Shown: piece by piece, positions 38,823 through 55,504 of the stretch
How positions within the stretch are numbered: position 1 is the stretch's first letter
Layout of the letters: every line of letters starts with the position of its first letter
Assembly (NCBI RefSeq): GCF_000317065.1
Contig: NC_019701.1
Location: 496,001-560,000 of the forward strand
DNA from: Pseudanabaena sp. PCC 7367
GTDB lineage: Bacteria > Cyanobacteriota > Cyanobacteriia > Pseudanabaenales > Pseudanabaenaceae
Reading direction: 5' to 3'
Length of the DNA: 64,000 nt
Notes under the pieces: model-generated
Told to the model about the DNA's origin: nothing
Seen by the model: the letters and a program-made list of their open reading frames with translations, nothing else
Database searches by the model: none
Program-made: the position numbers and the translations under genes

Positions 38823-41477
38823 CTACTTTTCAGTCAGGCTCCAAATCCCATCCCAATCATCACCGGGAGGCTTTTGCAGGAAATGTTGACAGCGACTTAG
38901 ATGCAACGAGGCGGCCTTGTTACTGCGATCGAGTTCTAGCACCCGACCAAACTGCGCCATCGAACTAGCAAACTGGCGCTGAAGATAAAGATTACGGCCG
39001 CGATCGTAAAGTTCCATGATTTCTTGCTTGGGGGCTGGAATTGAGTTGCTGCGCAGGTCTACCAGCTCATAAATGGAGATCGCCTTATTTTTGCCCTTCA
39101 CCTTAATCCGATCCAGCTCCGTTACCCATACTCGATCCTGGCAATAGGCATAGGTACTCTCACTGATAATAATATCGCAGCCATATTGCTTGGTGGCTCC
39201 TTCCAGGCGCGAGCCCAAATTTACGCCATCACCGATCGAAGTTAGCTCCATCCGCTTACTGGAGCCAATATTACCGCTAATTACCGTATCCGAATTGATG
39301 CCAATGCCAATATTCAAAATTGTCAGGCAGATCTCTTCTGGCGTGACGGGCTCACAACCATTGCGATCGATAAATTGCTGGAGACGCTGCTGATTAAACT
39401 GCACGAGCCTATGGCGCATTTCTACTGCCGCCTGTACCGACATCCAGGCGTGATCCTCTAGATACAACGGTGAACCAAACACCGCCATGATCGCATCACC
39501 AATATATTTATCCAGTGTGCCTTTAAATTCAAATACCGCATCCACCATCAACTCAAAATATTGATTGAGCATTTCCACCACTTCTTCCGCCTGCATTTGC
39601 TCAGTGATGGTGGTGTAGCTGCGGATATCCGAAAACAGCACGGAAACTTCTTCTCGTTTACCACCCAGCTCAGTCTCACCACTGGATAGAAGCTGTTCGG
39701 CTACTTCCTGGGTCATGTAGCGATAGAAGGTATTTTTAAGCCGTTTTTCCTGGCTAATATCTTCCATCACCACCAGCGCCCCGCGCACATTACCAGTTTC
39801 ATCATCATCAAAATCAAACATGGTATTGACTGAGAAATTGACGCTGCGCTCGCTGCCATTGAGGGCGGTTAGAGTTTGATCGGGATAATACTGCTTACTG
39901 CTTTTGGCATTTTTAGCTTCCAGGGCTGAATCGAACCAATTGGCAAACATGCCCTTATCAATGTTAATGATGTCATAGATCGATCGACCTTCGAGGCGAT
40001 AGTCATGGCCAAGATCGCCACAGCCCAATAATTCATAGGCTCGTTCATTGACGGCAATAATATTACCTTTATTATCGGTAGAAATCACCGCATCGGAAAG
40101 GCTGCGCAGAATGTCCTGCTGCATTTTTTGCTCTTGCTTGACCTTTTCAAACAGCTTGGCATTTTCTAGGGCTACGCCAGCCTGCACATTAAAGGCCTTC
40201 ATGAAATCTTCATCACCACTGTTAAAACTGGCTTTGAATATTTCCGGCGCTTCTGGCCAGGCCGCAGGATCATATTCTGGGAAGTCACCGCGCTGGCGTT
40301 TGTTCACCAATTGGGTCACGCCAATTAGTTCTTGAGCCGAATTGAAGATTGGCATACATAGCAGGCTACAGGTGCGATAACCATTGGATTGGTCAAACTT
40401 TTTAGAGTTTTCCGAATCGGCATGGTTATATAAATCAAAGGAAATATTTAATACATTGCCTGTTTCTGCTACCCGCCCAGCATAGCCAACGCCCAATGGT
40501 ACGCGCAGTTCTTTGGTGGTGCCATCTGCCAGTGATATCCGTGTCCACAGGTCATGGCGATCGCGGTCGATCAGCCATAGGGTACTGCGATCGGCATCCA
40601 TGAGTTGTTTGGCCTCATCCATCACCTTTTTGAGGGTGGTTTCGAGGTCTAAACTTTGCCCCAGAGACATCGCCGCCTGCATCAGTGCTTCCGCGGCACG
40701 TTGCTTTTGAGCCGCCAAATAGAAAGCTTGCGAACTCTCTAAGATCAGTCGCATAGATGGTGCAAACTGGGCAAATAGCGCCTGGTCTTCCTGGCTAAAC
40801 CCATAGGTATCGATCCGATCTTCCAGCGGAATGCTCCCATCTAGGCTGGTGAGTTTGTTGATTAGCTGCACCACCGCAACTAGATCGCCATTGTCATTGA
40901 GCAGCGGCATCGCCAGCATCGTATAGGTGCGATAGCCAGTGCGATCGAATTGTTTTTTAGCCTGAATGGAGCGGGGATCATCAAAAAAGTCGTAGAGAAT
41001 ATTGACCGTATTTTTGGTGAGGGCAACTTCTCCAGCGATGCTATTGGGAGCAAGAGGAATTCTGATTTCAATACTTTTGCCAGCCTCACCCTCTTTGGGG
41101 ACATTTGACCAGAGTTGATCACGTTCCGCATCGAGCAAAAAAATCGTGGTGCGATCGGCACTGAGCAACTCACCAATTTTGAAGCGGATCGCCTGGAGCA
41201 TTTCATCCAGGATCACATCAAAATCAGTATTGAGTAGACCCAGGGTTTGATTGACCACCCGCAGTCTTTGCTCAACATCAGTAACCGCCTGCTTAAAATT
41301 GTCCTGGGTGAGCGGAGCCAGCACTGAAGCAAAGCTGCCTCGCTTAGTTACCAGGGCACCGGCATAATTTGGCGCTGGTGTACTTCTAGCGCCAGTATTA
41401 ATATTATCGCTAATGTTGTCGCTATCTGTGACGATGTCAACTATGACAGCCGATTGATCTTCTGATGGTAATGTCAT
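38823..41477 (-). CDS. GAF-GAF-PAS adenylate cyclase (class III)
   Basis: This is an 884-residue signalling enzyme. Two GAF domains (about residues 80-255 and 275-445; LSADRTTIFLLDAERDQLWS and DADRSTLWLIDRDRHDLWT) bind small ligands. A PAS domain follows (about 455-575; LSDAVISTDNKGNIIAVN). The class III cyclase catalytic domain (about 600-800) has metal aspartates in VLFSDIRSY and GDAIMAVFG, the purine-selecting Lys in DKYIGD with Thr in ELTSIGDGVN, and Arg in NLGSRLEG. The Lys/Thr pair points to ATP rather than GTP. This matches the cyanobacterial CyaB1/CyaB2 architecture. The C-terminus adds a TPR-like segment. Confidence 0.9.
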   Translation of the reverse strand: MTLPSEDQSAVIVDIVTDSDNISDNINTGARSTPAPNYAGALVTKRGSFASVLAPLTQDNFKQAVTDVEQRLRVVNQTLGLLNTDFDVILDEMLQAIRFKIGELLSADRTTIFLLDAERDQLWSNVPKEGEAGKSIEIRIPLAPNSIAGEVALTKNTVNILYDFFDDPRSIQAKKQFDRTGYRTYTMLAMPLLNDNGDLVAVVQLINKLTSLDGSIPLEDRIDTYGFSQEDQALFAQFAPSMRLILESSQAFYLAAQKQRAAEALMQAAMSLGQSLDLETTLKKVMDEAKQLMDADRSTLWLIDRDRHDLWTRISLADGTTKELRVPLGVGYAGRVAETGNVLNISFDLYNHADSENSKKFDQSNGYRTCSLLCMPIFNSAQELIGVTQLVNKRQRGDFPEYDPAAWPEAPEIFKASFNSGDEDFMKAFNVQAGVALENAKLFEKVKQEQKMQQDILRSLSDAVISTDNKGNIIAVNERAYELLGCGDLGHDYRLEGRSIYDIINIDKGMFANWFDSALEAKNAKSSKQYYPDQTLTALNGSERSVNFSVNTMFDFDDDETGNVRGALVVMEDISQEKRLKNTFYRYMTQEVAEQLLSSGETELGGKREEVSVLFSDIRSYTTITEQMQAEEVVEMLNQYFELMVDAVFEFKGTLDKYIGDAIMAVFGSPLYLEDHAWMSVQAAVEMRHRLVQFNQQRLQQFIDRNGCEPVTPEEICLTILNIGIGINSDTVISGNIGSSKRMELTSIGDGVNLGSRLEGATKQYGCDIIISESTYAYCQDRVWVTELDRIKVKGKNKAISIYELVDLRSNSIPAPKQEIMELYDRGRNLYLQRQFASSMAQFGRVLELDRSNKAASLHLSRCQHFLQKPPGDDWDGIWSLTEK

Positions 41478-44108: not shown

Positions 44109-45215
44109 ATGTCAATCAAACCGCAATTCAAGCCCTGGACGGCGAGTACCGAGATCGTTGGCGTAACCCTGACGCTGCGATCGACCCTGGATAATCTTTT
44201 ACCTGCCAACTATGGCGTGGGGCTCCATGCCTGGTTTCTGCATCAGGTACGCGACAGCGATCCCATTCTTTCCGCCTATTTGCATGATGGCGAATCGGAA
44301 AAACCCTTCACCCTCTCGCCTCTGGTGGGTAAGTTGCTCAGTCGTGGCGATCGTCTGCTATTGCCCAAGCAAACTTTATACCGCTGGACAATCACCGCCC
44401 TCTATAAGCCTCTGTGTAAGTGGTTGGCAAAGTGGTTAAAAAATGTGCCAGAGGCGATCGATTTGCGGGATGCGACCCTGCCGATCGAGGCGATCGAGAT
44501 TTCTTTGCCAGCGATGACCTATAAAAAAATGTTCAAGGTGGAGCGGCAGCTAGCTCGCAACTTCACCCTTAGTTTTACTTCGCCAACGGGGTTCCGATCG
44601 AAGGGGCACCACCTGCCCTTGCCGATTCCGCGTAATGTATTTCATAGTTATTTGCGGCGCTGGAGTGATTTTGCCAAGCAATCGATCGACAAAGAAGAAT
44701 TCCTGAACTGGGTCGAGGAGAAGGTTTATATCAATAGTCATAATATCGCCACAATCAAGACGGCGGCAGGGAAGCGGGGGATGGTAACTGGGTTTACTGG
44801 GGTGGTGGAATTTGGCATTGATGGCGCGGCTCGAAATGACCTGACGCAGATGCAATTGCTACAAGCGCTGGTGCGTTATGCGCCCTATTGCGGCACGGGG
44901 CACAAGACTACGTTTGGGCTGGGGCAGACTAGCCTGGGCGAGGCGGAGGGATATGATCTGGCGTTGCCAGCGATCGCGGAGATTAAGCTGGCCGATCGGA
45001 TCGCGGCACTGACGGATATTTTTCTGGCGCAGAGGAAACGACCGAATAACGATCGATCGCGGCAGATTACGGCTACCTGGGCGACGGTGTTGGCAAGGCG
45101 GGAGTTTGGCGAATCGTTGCAGGACATTGCCGTTGATTTGGAGTTGAATTATCAAACCGCGAAAACCTATGTGAAGCTGGCGCGGCGGGCTTTGCGAGAG
45201 CATGAAGGGAATTAG
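44109..45215 (+). CDS. cas6: CRISPR repeat endoribonuclease Cas6 with C-terminal HTH extension
   Basis: Cas6 cuts precursor crRNA within repeats. The N-terminal RRM-like fold has the motif NYGVGLHAWFLHQV (His40 or His45 are candidate catalytic residues). The C-terminal ferredoxin fold ends in the glycine-rich loop GTGHKTTFGLGQ (residues 262-273). The core is followed by an additional 80-90 residues ending in a helix-turn-helix (ESLQDIAVDLELNYQTAKTYVKLARRAL, about 334-362) like a sigma or LuxR recognition helix. That is unusual for Cas6 and suggests DNA binding, perhaps autoregulation (inference). It converges with the cas10-cas7 operon. Confidence 0.88.
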   Translation: MSIKPQFKPWTASTEIVGVTLTLRSTLDNLLPANYGVGLHAWFLHQVRDSDPILSAYLHDGESEKPFTLSPLVGKLLSRGDRLLLPKQTLYRWTITALYKPLCKWLAKWLKNVPEAIDLRDATLPIEAIEISLPAMTYKKMFKVERQLARNFTLSFTSPTGFRSKGHHLPLPIPRNVFHSYLRRWSDFAKQSIDKEEFLNWVEEKVYINSHNIATIKTAAGKRGMVTGFTGVVEFGIDGAARNDLTQMQLLQALVRYAPYCGTGHKTTFGLGQTSLGEAEGYDLALPAIAEIKLADRIAALTDIFLAQRKRPNNDRSRQITATWATVLARREFGESLQDIAVDLELNYQTAKTYVKLARRALREHEGN

Positions 45216-45282: not shown

Positions 45283-45915
45283 TCAAGGCACATACTTAAC
45301 CTTTCGCAAACTGCCATCCTCACGCAGCGCCACCACTGAAACCTTTACAGCCTGCCCCTCGGTCAGCTTCTTCGCATGTTTCGGTTCCTTTTCCGTCAAT
45401 CGCACTGTTCCCAAAATCTCAAACGTGACCTTATTCCCCTTACCCAGACCAGTCACCACCGCATCCAGCAGCTCCCCCACCTGGAACTCATGCTGACTGG
45501 TGATCGCCGCGATCGCTTCTTCTCGTTCTGATCTTAGCTCCGTCGCCGCCATTTCCTGCAACTCTTCGATCGGAGTCGCCTCTGCATAATACCGCGTCAG
45601 CCTTGCTGCCCAGCCCAGAATCTGCAACAGTGCGGTTACATCATCTTGATAATCGAGCAAAAACTCCCGACATACCACCTCAATATTCTGCAAATAGGTC
45701 CTGGTGCGCTTACTGTGACCAATCTTGTCGCCCTGCTTCGCCAGGGTTGCCAAGTAATCAAAATACAGTTGCCCTGCCCCCGGTCGATCGGCAAAAGCCC
45801 GCAGGTAAGCGATCGTTTTTTTTAGTTCATTCGGATCAGCATCCGTTTTCGCCAGGGCGATCGCCATCCGTTCCGCCACCTGCATTTGATAATCGCTCAA
45901 GTTCTTTGTAAGCAT
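45283..45915 (-). CDS. Last gene of the type III-D operon, unknown function, possible OB-like C-terminus
   Basis: This 210-residue protein lies 10 bases after the cysteine-insertion cas7 gene and is the last gene of the effector operon. Residues 1-140 are helical with many charged residues (KKTIAYLRAFADRPGAGQLYFDYLATLAKQGD...). Residues 143-210 look like a small beta-barrel: QVGELLDAVVTGLGKGNKVTFEIL, then LTEGQAVKVSVVALREDGSLRKVKYV. This resembles an OB or S1/TRAM-like RNA-binding domain (inference). I do not recognise it as Csm6, Csx1 or any CARF protein. Position and tight coupling suggest an accessory subunit or regulator of the complex. Confidence 0.6.
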   Translation of the reverse strand: MLTKNLSDYQMQVAERMAIALAKTDADPNELKKTIAYLRAFADRPGAGQLYFDYLATLAKQGDKIGHSKRTRTYLQNIEVVCREFLLDYQDDVTALLQILGWAARLTRYYAEATPIEELQEMAATELRSEREEAIAAITSQHEFQVGELLDAVVTGLGKGNKVTFEILGTVRLTEKEPKHAKKLTEGQAVKVSVVALREDGSLRKVKYVP

Positions 45916-45925
45916 AGATCAATTT

Positions 45926-46972
45926 CTAGTACAATGCATCTGCTTGCCAACTTGCATTTTTGCCTAAAATGGAGACCAACTTTGCTAATTGGTTCGCCTG
46001 AACCAGGTTTTGATGAGCTAAAGCTATAGATCTTACGATCAGGCTATTTGAGTCAGATTTAGGCATACTTCCCTGCAAATCAAAATAGCGACTTTTTATA
46101 TCATCTCCATTAAATATCTCAGGTTCCACATTAATGGAAACCGTTCCAAAGCCGATCGGTTTGCCACCGCCAACCTTTAGGTTGAAACTATTATTCTGAT
46201 CCTGTCCTAGGGCAATTAACAAAGTCCCCAGCTCAGCAAGGGAAAGGTTCTGGAACTGCAACTTAGTCTTAAACTTATATTCATCAACTGCAACTTGAGT
46301 ATCTACTCCCTTATCACTTTCGGTTGCAGCCGAATCAAAGTTGTAATAGAACTTTCTGCCCCTGACTCTCTCATGTTCGTCATAGCACATGTGATGCCCT
46401 GGCCCATGTAAGTTTGGCATGAAGCATATATCTGAGGATACTTCTATGCAATGACAATCAAATATACTAATCAATCCTTGCCATCCCATAGAGCCAAATA
46501 CACGGCATGCAGGACATATTTCACTCTTATTCTCTTTTTTGTCCTTTTCCTTGATTTCACATTCTTTATACTTTTTTGCTGCTCTCGCCTTAGTTTTGCA
46601 TAAACAGCTTCGCGTAATCGCTTCAAAGACGGAGCGGACAACCCCTTTAAAAGAACTCCCAGGAATACGCAGGTGGCCAAGTGGACTGCTTTCCATAGTT
46701 TTGATCAAAGGAGCTGAATGTTTTATGTCAGTGCCCATTACCGTCAGGCCAGTTGATACATGCAAGGATGTCTTAACGGATAGGGTTACATGTAAAGCCC
46801 CATGCCAAAGATCGTGGCGGTAAATATTTTGTCCAGCTTTGGAAAGATCTTTTTTTATGGGGCGGTTAAGTAGTTCATATGGATGAGCTGGATCACAGCG
46901 TTTAACGTCAGATGGTAGTGGAACAAAGTCATAAGGCTTTGGGACATTTGGTTGCTTATAGGAATAAGTCAT
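45926..46972 (-). CDS. Type III-D RAMP protein, Cas7 with cysteine-rich insertion
   Basis: A Cas7-fold backbone subunit of 348 residues. The RAMP signature is HLRIPGSSFKGVVRSVFEAI (about residues 100-119). Directly after it is a Lys/Glu/Cys-rich insertion with Cys123, 125, 138, 153 and 156 (SCLCKT...ECEI...ICPACRVFGSMGW), a likely zinc site. The glycine-rich loop is KVGGGKPIGFGTV. The position of the catalytic Asp of Csm3-type Cas7 (before the PLIK/PVIK segment) is Ser86 in HSAPLIKT, so this subunit is probably not a nuclease. It corresponds to the Cas7-insertion subunit of type III-Dv. Its start overlaps the csx19-like stop by 4 bases. Confidence 0.75.
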   Translation of the reverse strand: MTYSYKQPNVPKPYDFVPLPSDVKRCDPAHPYELLNRPIKKDLSKAGQNIYRHDLWHGALHVTLSVKTSLHVSTGLTVMGTDIKHSAPLIKTMESSPLGHLRIPGSSFKGVVRSVFEAITRSCLCKTKARAAKKYKECEIKEKDKKENKSEICPACRVFGSMGWQGLISIFDCHCIEVSSDICFMPNLHGPGHHMCYDEHERVRGRKFYYNFDSAATESDKGVDTQVAVDEYKFKTKLQFQNLSLAELGTLLIALGQDQNNSFNLKVGGGKPIGFGTVSINVEPEIFNGDDIKSRYFDLQGSMPKSDSNSLIVRSIALAHQNLVQANQLAKLVSILGKNASWQADALY

Positions 46973-47475
46973 TTTCTCTCTTCCAGCTTAGGTTCTTTTA
47001 GGGTGAGCGCCACAAAATGCACAGTGCAGGTTTGCTTATTTTTAAAATATCTTTGTCCCATTGAACTATCTTTGGATTTAGGGACTTCCCCTACAAAGGG
47101 TTTAGGGAATCTGGTTTTATCTTGGTTCTTTTTATACAAATGAGCGTAGCGATCTTCGTATTCCCATTCCCCTGGTAAGGACTTAAATCCTTCAACCAGT
47201 TTCTTGGTAGTAAGCAATAAAACACTATACTCATTACCTTGTGGCTTCCATCTCAACTCGCTCTCACTATTGAATAGCTGCCCTGTTGGAGTAAGGCAAT
47301 CGGCACTTGGCAAGCCCTGCTTAAACCCACTAACCTGATGCGGTTCGCGCAGAAAGTAATAGTTCTCTTCTTTTCTCTCAGTGATAGTTATTTGTTTAAA
47401 TAGCTCAGAGAGTTCCTTTTGAGTAACATGATTCCGAAATCCAACATAGGCTTTATTACTACTTTTACTACTCAT
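46969..47475 (-). CDS. csx19: Csx19-like type III-D protein (all1473 group)
   Basis: A 168-residue protein in the slot where type III-D and III-Dv loci carry csx19, between the paired cas7 genes and the insertion cas7. The segment TGQLFNSESELRWKPQGNEYSVLLL (residues 64-88) resembles the G-x-L-F...E-L-R-W core I associate with Csx19/TIGR03984. In III-Dv, Csx19 sits in the complex as a non-RAMP subunit. The rest is charged and without motifs. Both its start and its stop overlap neighbours by 4 bases (ATGA), so it is strictly co-translated. The family call is moderate because it rests on position plus one motif. Confidence 0.6.
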   Translation of the reverse strand: MSSKSSNKAYVGFRNHVTQKELSELFKQITITERKEENYYFLREPHQVSGFKQGLPSADCLTPTGQLFNSESELRWKPQGNEYSVLLLTTKKLVEGFKSLPGEWEYEDRYAHLYKKNQDKTRFPKPFVGEVPKSKDSSMGQRYFKNKQTCTVHFVALTLKEPKLEERK

Positions 47476-48485
47476 GATGCAACTCCTTTTGGCATCAATA
47501 GCTTACGCCATGCCCCAACCGCACGCTCGAATAATTCTTTAACATTATTAGAATCCCAGACAAGTTCAACTCCGAATCCTAATTCCATTGCTTCACCTGG
47601 CACAGATGTATCTTGAAAATCATCTTTAGGGAACCCATATGCTTCACATTCACTCTTACTTAGGAACATCCCAGCCCCCAATAAAGAAGTATGCGGCCAT
47701 CCCGCAGTATTGCCAATCAACTTGATCTCTTCATTATCTAACACACAGCCAGGATACTGCACCACCACCCGATCGATCGCCACTTGTACCATTCCTAAAC
47801 CGCGCGACTTGGCAAACCCCAGACCAAACCAGCCCTCATTGAGATCTCGCAACACCAGCCCAATCAAGGCAAGTTGAGCAAGGGTGAAGTTCTTAAGATG
47901 GATCTTAGTTGTAAATTTCCCTGCGGTACAGACCTGATAGTTAAACGGCCCCACCGCCACCGAGCCGAAGACCCGATCGATCGCTACGCCATTTCGTTCT
48001 TCGGTTTTGACTGCTACCTCTGGAGCGGGATAGGCATCTTCGATCCTAAAGCGACTGGCAACTGATGTGCTACCAAATAACTGAGTTGTAAAACAGGACA
48101 TTTTGTACAACGAAGCTCCTGGATTAGGTTCCCTATCTTCTAACTTTTTATTCTTTTCACCTTTTTTCCAATCATCTAAATAGTGATTAGGGTTATTATC
48201 TCTACATTCACTCAGTGGATCGCTTGCCCAGAGTTTGTTTTGTTCATCACCAGGACGGCGATCGCTACCGATCGTTCTTACGATTCTTTCCGCATGGGCT
48301 CGGATCGCCCCTTTTAGCGAGCTACCTGGGAAATAGATCGATTTACCACCTTGATGATAGGTTTCTACAAACTCCATGCTCGGTTTAGTGGGATCGGCTC
48401 CTTCCTGGCCAGACTTGACTAAAACAGGGCCATCTGGCTCGATACTGATCTCAATGGTGCAATGATTAACTAATCGTTTATGCAT
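47472..48485 (-). CDS. Type III-D RAMP protein, Cas7 (Csm3-like)
   Basis: A Cas7 backbone subunit of 337 residues with KSGQEGADPTKPSMEFVET (Asp31 is the candidate catalytic residue), followed by SIYFPGSSLKGAIRAHAERIVRTIGSD (RAMP signature). The family segments SRFRIEDAYPA, RNGVAIDRVFGSV and the glycine-rich GFAKSRGLGMVQV are all present. The DPTxP...FV-T motif is the form seen in the second Cas7 of Cas7-2x and in Cas7-11 (family knowledge). It would bind crRNA and cut target RNA in one 6-nt register. It follows another cas7 by 37 bases and overlaps csx19 by 4. Confidence 0.82.
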   Translation of the reverse strand: MHKRLVNHCTIEISIEPDGPVLVKSGQEGADPTKPSMEFVETYHQGGKSIYFPGSSLKGAIRAHAERIVRTIGSDRRPGDEQNKLWASDPLSECRDNNPNHYLDDWKKGEKNKKLEDREPNPGASLYKMSCFTTQLFGSTSVASRFRIEDAYPAPEVAVKTEERNGVAIDRVFGSVAVGPFNYQVCTAGKFTTKIHLKNFTLAQLALIGLVLRDLNEGWFGLGFAKSRGLGMVQVAIDRVVVQYPGCVLDNEEIKLIGNTAGWPHTSLLGAGMFLSKSECEAYGFPKDDFQDTSVPGEAMELGFGVELVWDSNNVKELFERAVGAWRKLLMPKGVAS

Positions 48486-48522: not shown

Positions 48523-49440
48523 CTAAATACAACTAAGGTAAGTAATGAGTTCCTGTGTCCATTGTGTTTTTCTCTCTTCGTCCGAAGGAACCGGCTCGCG
48601 TTCTTGAGCTTCTTCCAGGCCGGCAAGCTTTTTGAGATATTTCAACATTTTCTGGGGATCTGGTTCGCTATTCTTTAATTTATTAGGGTTGAATAAACCG
48701 TCTTCTGGATCTTTCTCTACTTCTTTTGTAACATCAATCCAATTCATTTTATCGATCGTTAGTTTGACTACTCCTAAACCACGCGATCGTCCACCACCAA
48801 GCGGTATCTGCTCCGCCTCAAATTGATGTAAGCCAATCATGAGTAAGCCCAGTTCCCATCCTTCCGCATTCTCAACCACACATTTGAATTCAAACTCAGT
48901 GCCAGCAGGAACAACCTGATAGTTATAAAGCTTGCCGTCGGCGGCGGTTTCTGTGTCCCGATCGATCGATACCCCATCGCGTTCTTGATATTGACCAAAC
49001 CAGGTATCTTTAATTACAGTCAAATCCCTAACCTGGAATTTACTGGCTAGCCAGGGCGATCCAAATAACCGCGAGATTAGATCTGTATGCCCAATAATAT
49101 ATTCATTTAAGCTACTCTCTCGTTCATATTGGGAGAGCTTCTCAAGACTTTTTTTGAATTCTGAAAGTTCTTCCGATCTGATTGACCATTCTTTTTCATC
49201 AGAGGGATCTGCTACTAACCTTCGATCGCTACCCAAAATGCCGCGCAAAAAAGATTCTAGCCGCGATCGGAGCGCTCCTTTAAAACTGGAACCAGGAATC
49301 AAAGGATTACCCAATGCATCCTTGATTACAGGCAGATCGGAGCCGATCGGTTCATTAGAACGACCAGCACTAATTCTGATCGCCGTAATTGTTTTCAGTG
49401 TTCCTGTTACTTCTAAACGATTTTTGAATATATCAAACAT
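48523..49440 (-). CDS. Type III-D RAMP protein, Cas7 (Csm3/Csx7-like)
   Basis: A Cas7 backbone subunit of 305 residues. GSDLPVIKDALGNPLIPGSSFKGALRS contains the catalytic Asp (Asp35, in the same place as Asp33 of Csm3) and the RAMP signature. RDGVSIDRDTETAADGKLYNYQVVPAG and GGGRSRGLGVVKL complete the fold. A charged C-terminal tail (residues 255-295) is extra. It should cleave target RNA. The gene starts with ATG 40 bases after the small-subunit gene and is followed 37 bases later by another cas7. The pair corresponds to the fused Cas7-2x of III-Dv. Confidence 0.85.
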   Translation of the reverse strand: MFDIFKNRLEVTGTLKTITAIRISAGRSNEPIGSDLPVIKDALGNPLIPGSSFKGALRSRLESFLRGILGSDRRLVADPSDEKEWSIRSEELSEFKKSLEKLSQYERESSLNEYIIGHTDLISRLFGSPWLASKFQVRDLTVIKDTWFGQYQERDGVSIDRDTETAADGKLYNYQVVPAGTEFEFKCVVENAEGWELGLLMIGLHQFEAEQIPLGGGRSRGLGVVKLTIDKMNWIDVTKEVEKDPEDGLFNPNKLKNSEPDPQKMLKYLKKLAGLEEAQEREPVPSDEERKTQWTQELITYLSCI

Positions 49441-49480: not shown

Positions 49481-50032
49481 TTAACGTACTGGTTTAGCAT
49501 GTTTATTTTTCTCTTTACGAAGATTTTCCATGATTTTATTTTCTCCTACAAGAGCTGTATGTTCTCGTGCCAAGTACCCTAAATAAAGGCGAGCGAGCTT
49601 TAGGTGAATTTCTTTTGTTAATGCGGCCTTTTGCTGAGGATTTTTAAGATACTCAGATACGTCATTATTCTCTGCGTCACTATTTTCCAGGCTGTTGATA
49701 ATATCATTAGTATACTTGGACAACGCATTAAGTTCTTCTGCTAATTTGGTAGCAAAAAGCTTATCACCTAGAGAATGCTTCCAGATTGGACTTGAATTTG
49801 CCCTCCCAATTTGATACTTGATAAAACCTTTTATACTTTCCAAGGAAGCAGAAAATTCCATAGCCACTGCAAGAATATTGCGAAATGGCGTTTTTTTATC
49901 TTTTTGATGAATCTTGTAATCATGAGCGAGCTTCTGAAGCTGGAGTATAACTGAGTCCATTCGCAACCCTATCTCACTCTCGACTTTTAAATCCAATCTC
50001 ATCTGAAATCTTGAACGTTTCTTAATATCCAC
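49481..50032 (-). CDS. Type III-D small subunit, Cas11-like (Csm2 group)
   Basis: An all-helical protein of 183 residues. It has RNILAVAMEFSASLESIKGFIKYQIGR followed by SPIWKHSLGDKLFATKLAEELNAL and a Lys-rich end, as in Csm2/gr11 small subunits that line the target-RNA groove. I use the GTG start at 50032, directly after the csx10 TAA, because GGGAGGA lies about 10 bases before it. An ATG 30 bases further in is the alternative. Its place right after csx10 matches the Cas11 part of the fused Cas7-5-11 protein. Small subunits diverge strongly, so the call relies on size, helicity and position. Confidence 0.65.
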   Translation of the reverse strand: MDIKKRSRFQMRLDLKVESEIGLRMDSVILQLQKLAHDYKIHQKDKKTPFRNILAVAMEFSASLESIKGFIKYQIGRANSSPIWKHSLGDKLFATKLAEELNALSKYTNDIINSLENSDAENNDVSEYLKNPQQKAALTKEIHLKLARLYLGYLAREHTALVGENKIMENLRKEKNKHAKPVR

Positions 50033-51346
50033 TTATTTTGATTCCTCCCATAGGTTCAAGTGAAACCGATCGCAAACTCTGACCTGGCCAAACCCTTCGC
50101 AAGTGCGATCGCCCACTCCAGTTATTTCTAACTTTGCCAATCGCTCCAGCCAGTCTTCTTCATTCTCTTGACTAATACTAAATAAATATACTGCCCCCAT
50201 TTTAGTAACTAGCTCAACATCTTTCTTGAGCCCCCAGGCAGCATTCCAGCCCGATAAATAGTCATAACTACTGTAGGCGATCTCTAGTTGTAAATCTTGA
50301 TTATCACTGTTTTTGTTAACGAACTGTTGTAGCATTTCTGGCGAAATAATTGTCGTGCGCAACCAGTTTTCAGAAAGGATCGCATCAGATTGCAGATCGA
50401 TCGTAAAATATAGCTTTTTAGGATTAAAATCTCTTCCGCCAAAGAGCTTTTGCCAGTCTTTATATTGTTCTTCCAGCTTCGCATTAAATGCTTTTACGCG
50501 ATTCCCTAAAGCCTGCTGATTGCTGTTAGTATCGTTCGATTCAGCCTTAAGCTCTACCCTACCCAGCCCCCGCGAGATCGAACCACCAAAACGGAAGCTT
50601 TGTTGATTCGCCTGAATATAATCAATCAAAGCATTAGCTAATTCCTTATTCTCTAACAGGATTGAGCTTTTATATATTACTTGCTGATTATTTTTACCCT
50701 GCATCTCATTTAGCACCTCAATGCTATAAAGAATACTTTCTTCTGCGGTGTTAAGTTTGCGATTGATTCCAACCCTGGTCAGCAGTCGCTTGTCTATGCT
50801 AATAGAGTGATAGTTTTTTACTTCGCTATCAGTCTCTTCAGTACAATAGAAGCCTGAATAAGTATCAGTGCGATCGCTCTCTTTTCCCTCTAAATTTGGG
50901 CAGACTGGCGCATAAATCTGGTTGAGACATTGGGCACAAAAGCGATCGATCAGTGTATCAAACACCCCTTTCTTTTTGGTTTTATTATTATTTCTAAACC
51001 CTGAGTGTGTTTTTGCGCTGAGTGCTGTAGCTGGGAGTATGGAAATTTTTGAAGAGGCAATCCTGGCAAATTTTATCTCTTCCTCTAACTCATGCTTATA
51101 AATGGCGGGATAGGCATTCTGGAATATTGCTGCCCCATCATCCAGAAACAGCGACTTAAAATCATTCTCACTGGTACGAAGATGCTCTAGATTAGGCTGC
51201 GCTTGCTCAAGTATCTTAGCAGCGATCGCCCCTCTAATTACAGTGCCAGGGATATAATCACAAGCTTCACTGACCGAACCACCGGGCTTTTTCTTGCCGA
51301 TCGCCAAAGGAGAAAGGGCAGTAATCGTTAGATCAACCTGCTGCAT
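50033..51346 (-). CDS. csx10: Csx10, Cas5-group RAMP protein of type III-D
   Basis: Csx10 is the Cas5-like subunit that holds the 5' handle of the crRNA. This 437-residue protein has the RAMP start LTITALSPLAIGKKKPGGSVSEACDYIPGTVIRGAIA. A likely zinc knot with cysteines in FCAQCLNQIYAPVCPNL comes next, then SISIDKRLLTRVGINR, SFRFGGSISRGLGRVEL and the very typical C-terminal YDYLSGWNAAWGLKKDVELVTKMGAVYLFS with a final GFGQVRVC. It overlaps the preceding cas7 by 14 bases and abuts the small-subunit gene. Its presence is the key marker for subtype III-D. Confidence 0.88.
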   Translation of the reverse strand: MQQVDLTITALSPLAIGKKKPGGSVSEACDYIPGTVIRGAIAAKILEQAQPNLEHLRTSENDFKSLFLDDGAAIFQNAYPAIYKHELEEEIKFARIASSKISILPATALSAKTHSGFRNNNKTKKKGVFDTLIDRFCAQCLNQIYAPVCPNLEGKESDRTDTYSGFYCTEETDSEVKNYHSISIDKRLLTRVGINRKLNTAEESILYSIEVLNEMQGKNNQQVIYKSSILLENKELANALIDYIQANQQSFRFGGSISRGLGRVELKAESNDTNSNQQALGNRVKAFNAKLEEQYKDWQKLFGGRDFNPKKLYFTIDLQSDAILSENWLRTTIISPEMLQQFVNKNSDNQDLQLEIAYSSYDYLSGWNAAWGLKKDVELVTKMGAVYLFSISQENEEDWLERLAKLEITGVGDRTCEGFGQVRVCDRFHLNLWEESK

Positions 51347-52034
51347 TCGAGCTTCCCTCCGTAGCTTGTAATTCCTGAATATCTGCTTCCGTTATTTGAA
51401 ATGCGCTTAAATCCCATGACAGCCAACCCAATCCAGCAGACTTACTGCCACCAAGGGCATTGATGTGTTTTAGGGCTGCAAATATCAGGGGCTTAGCATA
51501 ACCTGGGCGATCGGGAATGAAGTTGATATTGCCCTCAAACTTTAGTTCAGAAGCAGGAGGTGTAGTTTCCAGGTAGAATAATTTTTGATCCTTTGCCGTT
51601 CTTAATTTTCTACTAATGGTTACGCCAGGTCTAGTAAATTCAGGTAAGCTGGCCGTATCTTGTTTACAGATTAAATCATCAAAGAGAACATGAGAAGGGA
51701 ACCTGGGATTACCAAAAATTTGACATATTTTGCAATAATTTCCCGACTGGCCTGGGGAACTCGCTCTCTGTGGGCACATATTCTGAGCGATCGGCGATCC
51801 ACAAACATCCCATTCTAATGCTCTGCCAAGTTTCTCGCATTCGTGGCGCAGTCGCCCTTTGATCTGAGACGCAGGAATAACAAACCGCCCCATTGCATCG
51901 CGCACGATCGGCTTATCTGCCAATGAACCCGAAGAACCACCAGCACCAATACAAAGAGCTGTATCGATCGTAGCAGCGATCGTGATTGGTTCCGTTCGCC
52001 TATCGGACTGAATAAGACGAGCAAGATTAACCAT
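51333..52034 (-). CDS. Type III-D RAMP protein, Cas7 with zinc-site cysteines (Csm3-like)
   Basis: The compact Cas7 subunit next to cas10, 233 residues. GSLADKPIVRDAMGRFVIPASQIKGRLRHECEKL holds the candidate catalytic Asp40 (as in Csm3) and a RAMP signature. A cysteine set follows: CGSPIAQNMC, then YCKICQIFGNPRF, the usual Csm3-group zinc site. TRPGVTISRKLRTAKDQKLFYLETTPPA and GGSKSAGLGWLSW complete it. It overlaps cas10 by 8 bases and csx10 by 14, so the three are translationally coupled. It corresponds to the N-terminal Cas7 domain of Cas7-5-11. Confidence 0.85.
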   Translation of the reverse strand: MVNLARLIQSDRRTEPITIAATIDTALCIGAGGSSGSLADKPIVRDAMGRFVIPASQIKGRLRHECEKLGRALEWDVCGSPIAQNMCPQRASSPGQSGNYCKICQIFGNPRFPSHVLFDDLICKQDTASLPEFTRPGVTISRKLRTAKDQKLFYLETTPPASELKFEGNINFIPDRPGYAKPLIFAALKHINALGGSKSAGLGWLSWDLSAFQITEADIQELQATEGSSNAAG

Positions 52035-54429
52035 TAGCTCTAACCTCCCTGGAAGATTTTGCTACATCGATCGGCTCCATTAAAACATTCTCTTCCTCAA
52101 TGAACGGATATAGATCAATTAACTCGCGCCAGATTGTTTCGTAGGCAATTATTTCTAGATTCCCTCCCTCATCTTCTTTAGCAACACTCAGCCAGGGTGC
52201 TAAGTTACCTTTATTCTCTTGATTCTTCGGTTTACACCAGGCTTCTTCAAAATCTTGTTTTAATTTTTTCTGCCCTTTCTTTAACCTAGTGCGGAAATAG
52301 CGATAGTTGAGAATGGCAGTGTTTTTGCCAAATTTCAGGAGATCACGAATTTGATAGAGTTGGGATTTAGGGAATTCCAACTCCTTGAGATCACGAATAA
52401 TATTGATCAAGCTATTTAATTCTGCCAGGGTATAGGGTGCAGCATATAATTTCAGCTTTTGATTCCTTTCTACGGTAAGTGCCTCGTCCCTGAATGAAGT
52501 AATATTGGATGAGATCATCGTTACCGCTTTCATCACAAGAAAATCGATCGTGCCGCCATAGTAGTTCTTCTGCGTTTTTAAGTTTTTGGCTTTCTTTTTG
52601 GCAGACTTGAGCAATTGGCTAACTAACTTATCTGCGTAATAGATAGGCGTGCTACTAGAGGTGATCAGAACTCCAGTGGACATACTTAATGATACTTTAT
52701 TCAGAGATATGCCATCTTCCGAATGTCGATGAGTATCTTTTTTTGTATTATCATGCTCTAGCTTGTATTTTCTTTGGGCTTTTTCACGCTCTCGATCGAA
52801 TTCACATAATATGTTTTCAAACTCCTCACCGATCGCAATAGCAATTTCCAGCGCCTTATTCGCAGGCACAATCAAGAGGACATCATCCCCACCGATCGTG
52901 ATAATTTCAAATGGATGAATCCAATCGCCATTTTTGTTTCTTGTGTCCTGGGCAGACGATAAATTTTTGAGCTGATATGGATGGAGGTGCTGGGCAATCG
53001 CCTTGTAAACAGAATTCTCAGTCGCTTTAAAAATCTCCTGGCTAAAGATTTTGTATCCTTCAATATCAGTAATAGTCTGGATATGACCACCCATATTGTT
53101 GCCATCGGCATATATATAGGCAATATAACCATTACGATCGCCTATCTCAACAACACTCTGAACTTCACTTATTGCATTATTGCGATTGAAATCTGCATAA
53201 TAATTATCACCAAGCCCTGGATTATCTTTTAGAAAATCTTGGAATTTCACAATCCAGCTATCAACCTCAAGCGCATCCCAATCTATACCTTGCGCCTTTT
53301 TTATCCTTTCCCACCAATCGAGATCTTCACCGCGCTTGGCTTTTTCACTTATCACCCGTTTTCTTGCCAAAGGCTCAGACATCCAGGGCTGACCGGGTAA
53401 ATCTTCAACTTGAGCGATCGCGGTGCGGCTGTCATAGCTATCCCTGACCAGATAGGGATGAGTCTCAAACATGGGTGGATAGCAACGAGGCGATCGCCCT
53501 TCCTCAAAATCATTCCCATTACGACGATACTCAAATTTTGTGGCTAGTTTCGCTACCAGTTCATTAAAACTTTTTCGTTTTCTAAATACTTCCTTGAATT
53601 CACCTTCATCTGAAAGGCTTTTTGCATTGAACTGCGATCGCACGATTGGGCTATCTCTCTTCTCCCAATAATCATTCAGCCATGGCGTTTGCCGAATATT
53701 TTCTTGGTTAAGCAACCCAAACCGAAACTCCAGTAATGAGAACTTTTCACCAACAGCACAGGAATTCGCCGTCATCGTCTCGTCGGTATAGCGCTTCTCG
53801 ATCGCATCAGCTAAGTGATTCACAAAGAACGCTGGACAAAGGGCAAGAATATTACCACCAGTTGAATAGATTTTTAGTTCGGGGATTAATGCTTGCTTTA
53901 GATCGCCAAAGCCGTTTTTATTTAGCCATTTATTTACTGCTTTTCTTAAGTGAGCTTGCTCATCTTTTACTTGCAAGTGAGTTTGATCATCTGTCTCGAT
54001 TTCAAAAAAAGCAGGGAGATCCGCTAGATTAATTCGATCTAATAGAGCAGAAGCGCCTCTAATACCAGGCAGCTTGGCTGCTTCAAATACATACTGTTTG
54101 ATCTTGGTAGCACCGCCATAGACCAGGCCAATCTTAATTTCTTGCTCTACCAGTTTGGCGTAATCATTATCATTGGTGAGAGTGTCGATCGCCTTGCCAA
54201 ATTCCCCCTCTTGGATTTTAATATTTTGCAATTCTTGAACTTGCTCAACGATCGACGCAACCGCCGCAGGCACTTGATCGATTTGCCCACTTATTAGGGC
54301 ATCCCGCATCTGCAAAAGCACTTGCCGATCGAAATTCGGCTCTTTTTGATCTCCCCAGGCCAAACACCAGGACAGGGCGATCGTGGTCTGCTGTTTCTCT
54401 TTAGCTGTGCTCTGGTTCTCTGCTGGCAT
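52027..54429 (-). CDS. cas10: Cas10, type III-D (GGDD cyclase-type palm, no HD domain)
   Basis: Cas10 is the large subunit. It recognises target RNA and, with an intact palm, makes cyclic oligoadenylate. The first palm is visible from IGLVYGGATKIKQYVFEAAKLPGIRGASALLD (about residues 100-131) with YSTGGNILALCP. The second has YIYADGNNMGGH and the synthase motif GGDD at residues 513-516 (TIGGDDVLLIVP). The roughly 100 residues before the first palm contain no HD motif, so the ssDNA nuclease domain is absent. That is characteristic of III-D. The 800-residue length fits. It is the first gene of the operon. Confidence 0.9.
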   Translation of the reverse strand: MPAENQSTAKEKQQTTIALSWCLAWGDQKEPNFDRQVLLQMRDALISGQIDQVPAAVASIVEQVQELQNIKIQEGEFGKAIDTLTNDNDYAKLVEQEIKIGLVYGGATKIKQYVFEAAKLPGIRGASALLDRINLADLPAFFEIETDDQTHLQVKDEQAHLRKAVNKWLNKNGFGDLKQALIPELKIYSTGGNILALCPAFFVNHLADAIEKRYTDETMTANSCAVGEKFSLLEFRFGLLNQENIRQTPWLNDYWEKRDSPIVRSQFNAKSLSDEGEFKEVFRKRKSFNELVAKLATKFEYRRNGNDFEEGRSPRCYPPMFETHPYLVRDSYDSRTAIAQVEDLPGQPWMSEPLARKRVISEKAKRGEDLDWWERIKKAQGIDWDALEVDSWIVKFQDFLKDNPGLGDNYYADFNRNNAISEVQSVVEIGDRNGYIAYIYADGNNMGGHIQTITDIEGYKIFSQEIFKATENSVYKAIAQHLHPYQLKNLSSAQDTRNKNGDWIHPFEIITIGGDDVLLIVPANKALEIAIAIGEEFENILCEFDREREKAQRKYKLEHDNTKKDTHRHSEDGISLNKVSLSMSTGVLITSSSTPIYYADKLVSQLLKSAKKKAKNLKTQKNYYGGTIDFLVMKAVTMISSNITSFRDEALTVERNQKLKLYAAPYTLAELNSLINIIRDLKELEFPKSQLYQIRDLLKFGKNTAILNYRYFRTRLKKGQKKLKQDFEEAWCKPKNQENKGNLAPWLSVAKEDEGGNLEIIAYETIWRELIDLYPFIEEENVLMEPIDVAKSSREVRANG

Positions 54430-54664: not shown

Positions 54665-55504
54665 TTAATCAATTGCGCTCATAACATAGGCTGAATCAAC
54701 CATTGCTACCATAAGTGATATTTTGTTATTAGCTATATGAACATAATCAACTTTTTTGCTATGTAAAAACGCTGTTAGTACATCTGATTTCGAAGGAATA
54801 TAGACAACAATCATAGCTTTCTTGCTAAGTTGGTTTGCGATCTGATTCAGGGATTGCTTTAGCTCAGGCTCAGACTGAGGTGCATTTACAATATCCAACA
54901 ATACAGCGCAGTTCTCATATCTATCATCTTGTCTAATGGCAATTTCCGGCGTGATTCTGAATCTTCTTTTGCTTAGAATCCTGTATTCTGGAAGTTTCTT
55001 AACATCTGCTATGGATTGACCAATAAGCAAATATATAATTTGTAATTCCTCTATTACCACTTCTTTGGCTACTGCTCTTTCAACAAACTCTAACCGCTGT
55101 CGAATTTCCCTTGAAATCTGATTATTTACTTCTCGCTTAATAATGTAATTCATTTCCCGATCGACTATACTTACAATCTCTCGCTTCAACGATTCGGTGA
55201 TTTTTTCTTCAGCTTCCGTAAGAGTTTTGCCGTAAATAAAGACCGCGATCGCTCCCAAAACCCCAACAAAGACAAGGAAATAGTTGAAATTATTACTTAA
55301 AGAGTCAAAATTGTTAGCAATTTTCTCATTTGCATCCTGCAGAAACTCGATCTGCTTTAGCAGAATATCCACATCTACGCTAGGAGAAGGAGTCGGAATT
55401 GGGGTTGGCGTAGGGCTAGGGCTGGGCGTAGGTTGAGCCTGAGCAACAAGAGCCACCAGATCGAACAGATGCCAGTGTATAGATTGCAAATTCAGTAAAT
55501 TCAT
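54665..55504 (-). CDS. Membrane-anchored coiled-coil protein upstream of cas10, possible type III ancillary protein
   Basis: The N-terminus up to about AQAQ looks like a signal or membrane segment. A Pro/Thr/Ser linker (PTPSPSPTPTPIPTPSPS) follows, then a transmembrane helix (FNYFLVFVGVLGAIAVFIYG). Next is a long coiled coil (EAEEKITESLKREIVSIVDREMNYIIKREVNN...). The last 100 residues look like a small Rossmann-type fold: ENCAVLLDIVNAP, KKAMIVVYIPSKSDVLTAFL, KVDYVHIAN. I see no HEPN or nuclease signature and no certain CARF motif. I prefer the ATG at 55504 over a TTG at 55537. It is same-strand and adjacent to cas10, so a role as signal-triggered membrane effector is possible but unproven. 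Confidence 0.6.
   Translation of the reverse strand: MNLLNLQSIHWHLFDLVALVAQAQPTPSPSPTPTPIPTPSPSVDVDILLKQIEFLQDANEKIANNFDSLSNNFNYFLVFVGVLGAIAVFIYGKTLTEAEEKITESLKREIVSIVDREMNYIIKREVNNQISREIRQRLEFVERAVAKEVVIEELQIIYLLIGQSIADVKKLPEYRILSKRRFRITPEIAIRQDDRYENCAVLLDIVNAPQSEPELKQSLNQIANQLSKKAMIVVYIPSKSDVLTAFLHSKKVDYVHIANNKISLMVAMVDSAYVMSAID

What the first reader, a model, noticed from the sequence alone, without database searches (positions are those of the whole stretch)
52027..54429. Cas10 with an intact GGDD synthase motif but no CARF nuclease in sight
Seen: GGDD at residues 513-516 and no HD motif in the N-terminus. No Csm6, Csx1, Can1 or other recognisable CARF-nuclease gene lies in the 11 kb around it. 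Established: GGDD Cas10 makes cyclic oligoadenylates that need a receptor. Inference: either the receptor is encoded elsewhere or it is one of the two unassigned neighbours (45283 or 54665).
Basis: partly seen in the sequence, partly recalled or inferred. Interest (0 to 1): 0.65.

Follow-up and report, generated by a model that had tools for sequence, protein, structure and literature searches.

The report
CARF-less CRISPR III-D with membrane receiver
A cyanobacterial type III-D CRISPR system has a signal-making Cas10 but no CARF receptor; the gene just upstream encodes a membrane protein ending in a receiver-like domain, very probably the already proposed but untested effector Cam2.

Summary
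Cas10 (52027-54429, minus strand) has GGDD at residues 513-516 and no N-terminal HD. No CARF or SAVED gene lies in the locus. Seven CARF/SAVED/HEPN profiles find none anywhere in the 4.89 Mb genome, which carries one PF22335-detectable Cas10. Five of those seven profiles detected a positive somewhere; two did not.

The "unassigned" genes are known families. 45283-45915 is Csx21: helical, with an S1/OB-like barrel, not a CARF. 54665-55504, directly upstream of Cas10, belongs to PADLOC C3a55/Mem_02 (E = 2e-77). It has a hydrophobic N-terminus, a Pro-rich linker, one clear transmembrane helix, a long helix and a C-terminal domain whose AlphaFold model matches response-regulator receiver (REC) domains.

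That is the architecture of Cam2, a candidate effector proposed in 2024 and untested as far as I could find. Homologues occur only in cyanobacteria here. Fifteen of 19 sit within about 10 kb of III-B or III-D effector genes, and every linked Cas10 with its palm region readable keeps GGDD and lacks HD. Two sit beside SAVED-CHAT, as reported for Cam2.

Best reading: Cas10's cyclic oligoadenylate opens or disrupts the membrane through this protein. Ligand binding is not shown. New member of a known kind.

The parts
54665..55504 (-). Cam2-like candidate effector (PADLOC C3a55/Mem_02), 279 aa from ATG (the ORF opens at TTG 55537): N-terminal hydrophobic segment 6-21, Pro-rich linker, TM helix about 72-92, long helix 95-147, receiver-like domain 150-278
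52027..54429 (-). Cas10, GGDD 513-516, no N-terminal HD
51333..52034 (-). Cas7-group RAMP (Csm3-like)
50033..51346 (-). Csx10 (Cas5, III-D signature; TIGR02674 8e-120)
49481..50032 (-). Cas11 / Csm2-like small subunit
48523..49440 (-). Csx7 (Cas7-group RAMP, TIGR02581 1.9e-74)
47472..48485 (-). Cas7-group RAMP (Csm3-like)
46969..47475 (-). Csx19
45926..46972 (-). Cas7-group RAMP of TIGR03986 type (below that model's cut-off)
45283..45915 (-). Csx21: helical N-terminus plus C-terminal S1/OB-like beta barrel (residues 149-209); not a CARF fold
44109..45215 (+). Cas6 fused to a C-terminal HTH domain

Best explanation
This is a type III-D CRISPR-Cas locus whose Cas10 is a cyclase without an HD nuclease. 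Its most likely receptor is the protein encoded immediately upstream (54665-55504, minus strand). On recognising target RNA, Cas10's palm makes a cyclic oligoadenylate. The messenger binds the cytoplasmic receiver-like domain, probably at the conserved C-terminal edge of its beta sheet (D204, N207, Y235, N259). The long helix carries the change to the membrane helix, and the oligomer perturbs or depolarises the membrane, stopping growth and phage production. Shown here: Cas10 motif state, gene identities, receiver-like fold of a predicted model, association with GGDD-positive HD-less Cas10s, and no CARF/SAVED match in the genome with the profiles tried. Inferred: that Cas10 makes a messenger, that this protein binds it, which ring size (cA3 favoured because homologues sit beside SAVED-CHAT), oligomeric state, and membrane disruption as the output.
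For: Family match C3a55 2e-77 and Mem_02 ('2TM membrane protein with globular domain') 5e-29. AF2 model: domain 150-278 at pLDDT 70-89 by blocks of ten (mostly 78-89) with order b1-a1-b2-b3-a3-b4-a4-b5-a5. Foldseek against the PDB returns mostly response-regulator receiver and CpaE-type receiver-like domains at the top (4dad E 7e-4; 3lte TM-score 0.56-0.62 by target) and no CARF in the 50 rows shown. D204, N207, Y235 and N259 are invariant in 18 homologues and lie at strand C-termini. Of 19 distinct homologue loci, 15 have type III effector genes within about 10 kb and 2 more have CRISPR arrays, Cas6 or Cas1 (search blind to CRISPR). All 10 linked Cas10s with the palm region readable (some incomplete) carry GGDD; none shows an N-terminal HD where the N-terminus is present, while the Synechocystis III-B control does. 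III-D synteny in G338 and G352: Cas10 through Csx21, then this gene, then Cas6-HTH. It moves between III-B and III-D on its own tree, as sensor/effector modules do (PMC12669027). SAVED-CHAT neighbours in Calothrix PCC 7716 and Nostoc TCL26-01, TIR-SAVED in a third. Only one Cas10 detected in the genome, so in-trans signalling from a second type III locus has no visible partner. A 10-repeat array with a hairpin repeat ending ACTGAAAC lies at G000:C2:841798, a possible guide source.
Against: No ligand binding, messenger synthesis or toxicity has been tested. The receiver similarity is fold-level only: no Pfam Response_reg match in the rows shown for 18 members, Foldseek E-values near 1e-3, and a model built on 18 sequences. 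This member is the most divergent (23-35% identity to the others, branch 1.66) and lacks the D before Y158 that most others have. Two homologues have no CRISPR neighbour (L028, L040). Profile searches do not exhaust the divergent CARF superfamily. Csx21 remains an unassigned accessory.
Confidence: 0.72

Rival explanations
1. The receptor is a divergent CARF, SAVED or other sensor effector encoded elsewhere in the genome and missed by the profiles used; the upstream membrane protein is an accessory.
For: CARF families are highly divergent; two of seven profiles detected nothing anywhere (PF09670, PF09659). Hoikkala et al. report effector-lacking loci more often in genomes with several type III loci, suggesting in-trans signalling (PMC11229360).
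Against: Only one Cas10 found in this genome; SAVED and the main CARF models with working positives are negative; no CARF adjoins the syntenic III-D loci of G338/G352; the only Cas1 found is a type I-C locus with no CARF seen by eye among its ORFs.
Confidence: 0.13
2. Csx21 (45283-45915) is the messenger receptor or effector.
For: It is a conserved type III-associated family (PADLOC 5e-79) at the 3' end of the III-D operon in four other loci (L034, L037, L038, L039).
Against: The C-terminal part models as an S1/OB-like barrel (weak Foldseek hits, many to S1/OB-containing RNA-binding proteins) and not a Rossmann fold; most of the N-terminal helical part is below pLDDT 50. Fits crRNA/RNA binding or complex assembly better. 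In L037 the C-terminal half is not conserved.
Confidence: 0.07
3. The membrane protein is a true phospho-receiver wired to a histidine kinase, and its link to type III loci is regulatory.
For: A beta-3 aspartate (D204) is invariant.
Against: No histidine kinase gene seen next to it; the beta-5 lysine position appears to be N259 and the beta-1 acid pair is not conserved, so phosphotransfer residues look incomplete (positions inferred from topology, not from a superposition).
Confidence: 0.05
4. The locus is a decaying or signalling-dead system; GGDD is a relic and the neighbour is incidental.
For: No CRISPR array or cas1/cas2 within the window or the adjacent sequence read; relatives show broken copies (L037 cut by a Tn3 element, L035 Cas10 split by an IS).
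Against: All genes of the operon are open and syntenic with relatives (Cas10 51-53%, Csx7 and Csm3-like 58-60% identity); a Cas6-HTH is present; a separate 10-repeat array with identical repeats exists at C2:841798.
Confidence: 0.05

Closest known systems
Cam2 (CRISPR-associated membrane protein 2; Hoikkala et al. 2024, PMC11229360)
   Same: N-terminal TM part plus C-terminal REC-like domain; gene in type III loci with cyclase-positive, HD-less Cas10; two members next to SAVED-CHAT (paper: 2 of 26; here Calothrix PCC 7716 and Nostoc TCL26-01, both complete genomes).
   Different: No Cam2 sequence was available to compare directly; this member is divergent. The paper's NucC-adjacent case was not seen here.
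PADLOC families C3a55 (PDLC01054) and Mem_02 (PDLC01156)
   Same: Direct profile membership, 2e-77 and 5e-29.
   Different: The C3a55 model is described as 'ABC permease' and weakly hits unrelated ABC permease proteins; no TM-REC architecture or function is attached.
Cap1 (PMC12642688), Csx23 (PMC11014256), Cam1 (PMC10808066)
   Same: Small TM part plus cytoplasmic sensor domain in type III loci, membrane output (depolarisation shown for Cap1 and Cam1).
   Different: Sensors are CARF-like, a separate soluble domain, or CARF; here the model is receiver-like, and no PDB sequence relative is found.
Synechocystis pSYSA III-D with SyCsx1/SyCsm6 (PMC9676260)
   Same: Cyanobacterial III-D with GGDD Cas10 and no N-terminal HD.
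   Different: That locus carries two CARF proteins; they served as positive controls here.

Membership tests
Type III-D CRISPR-Cas | Csx10 (Cas5 of III-D) with Csx19 and multiple Cas7 RAMPs | tested here: met
   TIGR02674 8e-120; Csx19 8.5e-44; four Cas7-group RAMPs
Type III-D CRISPR-Cas | Cas10 with intact cyclase GGDD, HD usually absent | tested here: met
   PMC11229360 reports 3% HD in III-D
Type III-D CRISPR-Cas | CRISPR array able to supply guides | tested here: inconclusive
   None in the window or adjacent sequence; isolated 10-repeat array at C2:841798 found in about half the genome read; link to this Cas6 not shown
Cam2 | N-terminal transmembrane helical part | tested here: met
   Hydropathy 2.17 at 73-91 in this protein; a strong segment (1.76-2.68) in all 18 homologues
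Cam2 | C-terminal domain with REC fold | tested here: met
   AF2 model, Foldseek hits mostly receiver or receiver-like domains, TM-score up to about 0.62 by target; not supported by any sequence profile
Cam2 | Encoded in type III loci; some beside SAVED-CHAT | tested here: met
   15 of 19 loci; SAVED-CHAT in L024 and L035
Cam2 | Sequence homology to published Cam2 proteins | not testable with these tools
Cam2 | Binding of cA3 or another cyclic oligoadenylate | not testable with these tools
   Also unproven for Cam2 itself in the paper
CARF or SAVED effector | CARF or SAVED domain in the protein | tested here: not met
   No profile match; no CARF in the 50 Foldseek rows shown
Cap1 | Two TM helices, CARF-like domain, DUF4579 | tested here: not met
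   No Pfam match to DUF4579; no sequence match in the PDB

The most novel reading that the evidence does not exclude
A whole type III signalling chain with no CARF or SAVED protein anywhere in the genome, in which a receiver domain borrowed from two-component signalling senses Cas10's messenger and acts on the membrane. Because this genome has one detectable Cas10 and one such protein, it would be a clean natural single-effector system to prove REC-type sensing.
Probability: 0.55. Interest if true: 0.6.

Novelty: new member of a known kind. Interest (0 to 1): 0.38.

Why it matters
It turns an apparent orphan cyclase into a testable pair of neighbouring genes, links the obscure database families C3a55/Mem_02 to the proposed effector Cam2, and points to loci (this one, and the III-D loci of G338 and G352) where a receiver-type sensor appears to be the only candidate receptor of a III-D Cas10. 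If confirmed, REC domains join CARF and SAVED as sensors of cyclic oligoadenylates.

Tried and rejected
(1) Receptor elsewhere: seven profile searches of the whole genome, negative; direct tblastn of Synechocystis CARF, SAVED-CHAT, TIR-SAVED and the G352 CARF against about half of the genome, negative. (2) Csx21 as receptor: the folded part is an S1/OB-like barrel. (3) C3a55 as an ABC permease, as PADLOC describes it: the strong members are TM-REC proteins; the weak hits whose ORFs I read are ABC permeases of the DppC kind (my reading of the sequences). (4) Solved relatives by sequence: none. (5) Viral copies: none confirmed. (6) The III-D repeat of relatives in this genome: no match within 3 mismatches. 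(7) Phage matches to the C2:841798 array: none. (8) A PADLOC scan of 58 neighbouring proteins listed only 25 of 43 families, no CARF among those, so it is not conclusive. (10) The first fold of the array repeat used a mistyped sequence and is superseded.

Full report
OBSERVATION. The locus is real and lies on the minus strand. The 800-aa Cas10 has GGDD at 513-516 and no N-terminal HD; the only HD dipeptide is at 559 in the palm region. The operon reads, 5' to 3' on the minus strand: 54665-55504 membrane protein, 235-nt gap, Cas10, Csm3-like Cas7, Csx10, Csm2-like Cas11, Csx7, Csm3-like Cas7, Csx19, TIGR03986-like Cas7, Csx21. A Cas6-HTH gene stands opposite. This is a type III-D locus. Lack of HD is typical: HD occurs in 3% of III-D Cas10s in the survey of Hoikkala et al. 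(PMC11229360).

IS THE RECEPTOR ELSEWHERE? The genome (4.89 Mb, 2 contigs, 100% complete) has one PF22335-detectable Cas10. SAVED (PF18145), PF09651, PF22230, PF09670, TIGR02221, PF09659 and PF23400 gave no match in it. The searches can detect: SAVED hits two relatives, PF09651 hits G352, TIGR02221 hits Synechocystis pSYSA, PF22230 and PF23400 hit control genomes. PF09670 and PF09659 detected nothing anywhere, so they carry no weight. The only Cas1 found belongs to what reads as a type I-C locus 1.6 Mb away with an 80-repeat array and a 14-repeat one (subtype assigned by reading gene order and sequences, not by profile). CARF proteins diverge strongly, so absence is likely but not proven.

THE TWO 'UNASSIGNED' NEIGHBOURS. 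Both have names. 45283-45915 is Csx21 (5e-79); its model has a confident C-terminal five-strand barrel resembling S1/OB domains and a mostly unconfident helical N-terminus, so it fits RNA or complex binding. 54665-55504 matches C3a55 (2e-77) and Mem_02 (5e-29), the latter described as a 2TM membrane protein with a globular domain. It has a weakly hydrophobic N-terminus, a Pro-rich stretch, one strong TM helix at about 72-92, a long helix, and a C-terminal domain. The domain (150-278; blocks of ten at pLDDT 70-89) has the order b1-a1-b2-b3-a3-b4-a4-b5-a5. The Foldseek search of the PDB gives mainly response-regulator receiver domains and CpaE-type receiver-like domains, with TM-scores up to about 0.62 by target length; no CARF is among the 50 rows shown. 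No Pfam profile recognises it, so the receiver relation rests on fold alone.

CONSERVATION. In 18 homologues D204, N207, Y235 and N259 are invariant and lie at the C-terminal ends of strands 3, 4 and 5, the face that carries the active site in receivers. Mean conservation at strand C-termini is 0.71 against 0.55 elsewhere; random block sets reach this in 2.75% of trials, so the clustering is suggestive only. The conserved aspartate remains, while the beta-1 acids and the beta-5 lysine appear not to, by position in the topology. I infer ligand sensing rather than phosphorelay.

ASSOCIATION. A search blind to CRISPR found relatives in cyanobacterial genomes only, plus three cyanobacterial plasmids. 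In 386 genomes of the phylum, 7 have a strong match and all 7 have Cas10, against 102 of 386 with Cas10 over the cut-off. Of 19 distinct loci, 15 have type III effector genes (Cas10 or RAMPs) within about 10 kb: own, L024-L027, L029, L032-L039 (L033 is the same contig as L042) and L041. L030 and L031 have an array, Cas6 or Cas1. L028 and L040 have nothing. In G338 and G352 the whole III-D block is syntenic (Cas10 51-53% identical) with this gene convergent at the 3' end; here it is at the 5' end. All ten linked Cas10s with a readable palm carry GGDD, and no HD is seen in an N-terminus that is present. On the gene's tree III-B and III-D labels are mixed (at least 4 changes forced by well-supported branches for III-D), although the present sequence is a long branch whose place is unsure. 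Variable position plus movement between subtypes is what effector modules do (PMC12669027).

NAME. Hoikkala et al. describe Cam2 as a TM part plus REC domain, found by looking for effectors in cyclase-positive HD-less loci without known effectors; 26 loci, two beside SAVED-CHAT, predicted to be cA3-activated, untested. Here Calothrix PCC 7716 and Nostoc TCL26-01 have SAVED-CHAT beside the gene, and G060 has TIR-SAVED. I take the family to be Cam2 at about 85%. I could not compare sequences, so this is not a proven membership. A library search found no later paper naming Cam2 with type III CRISPR.

MECHANISM. Shown: parts, motifs, predicted fold, linkage, absence of CARF/SAVED matches. Inferred: target RNA triggers Cas10 to make a cyclic oligoadenylate; the receiver-like domain binds it; the long helix relays to the membrane helix; membrane integrity or potential is lost. 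Analogues with the same logic are Cam1, Cap1 and Csx23 (PMC10808066, PMC12642688, PMC11014256). cA3 is favoured by the SAVED-CHAT company, weakly, because companions in other loci need not share the ligand.

GUIDES. No array lies in the window or in the sequence from C2:436001 to 600000. About half of the genome could be read. In it, besides the type I-C arrays, a cas-less array of 10 identical 37-nt repeats (ATTGCAACGCTCCTTTACCCCGCAAGGGGACTGAAAC, hairpin -7.7 kcal/mol, no better than many shuffles) lies at C2:841798. It may serve the III-D complex through Cas6-HTH; that is a guess.

VERDICT. It is a new member of a known, still untested kind. The value is a clean single-receptor system for testing REC-type sensing.

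Noticed in passing
G000:C2:841798-842505 (locus L105): Isolated cas-less CRISPR array, 10 identical 37-nt repeats ATTGCAACGCTCCTTTACCCCGCAAGGGGACTGAAAC; possible guide source for the III-D complex. No phage match to the array.
   Followed up: partly
G000:C2:2198498-2213800: What reads as a type I-C cas locus (Cas3, Cas5, Cas8c, Cas7, Cas4, Cas1) with arrays of 80 and 14 repeats; the only Cas1 found in the genome.
   Followed up: partly
L039:3220-3765 (G352): Another type III-associated transmembrane protein (PADLOC C3a59, 4.9e-60) at the 5' end of a syntenic III-D locus, where the present genome has the Cam2-like gene.
   Followed up: no
L037 (Nostoc sp. UHCC 0870 plasmid) and L035 (Nostoc sp. 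TCL26-01 plasmid): Broken relatives: the III-D operon cut inside Csx10 by a Tn3-family element with Cas10 missing from the stretch, and a III-B Cas10 split by an ISKra4 element, while the Cam2-like gene stays intact.
   Followed up: no
L041:9999-11219 (G060): TIR-SAVED effector gene next to a Cam2-like gene in a III-B-like locus.
   Followed up: partly
PADLOC PDLC01054 (C3a55), loci L009-L022: The C3a55 model is described as 'ABC permease' and weakly hits proteins that read as DppC-type ABC permeases; its strong members are TM-REC proteins, so the description looks wrong.
   Followed up: partly
window 38823-41477 (-): GAF/PAS protein with a class III nucleotide cyclase domain; weak match to Pycsar cyclase models, probably a housekeeping adenylate cyclase.
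   Followed up: no
G000:C2:1625264-1625800: Seven 78-bp tandem repeats, apparently coding (glycine/serine-rich), not CRISPR.
   Followed up: no
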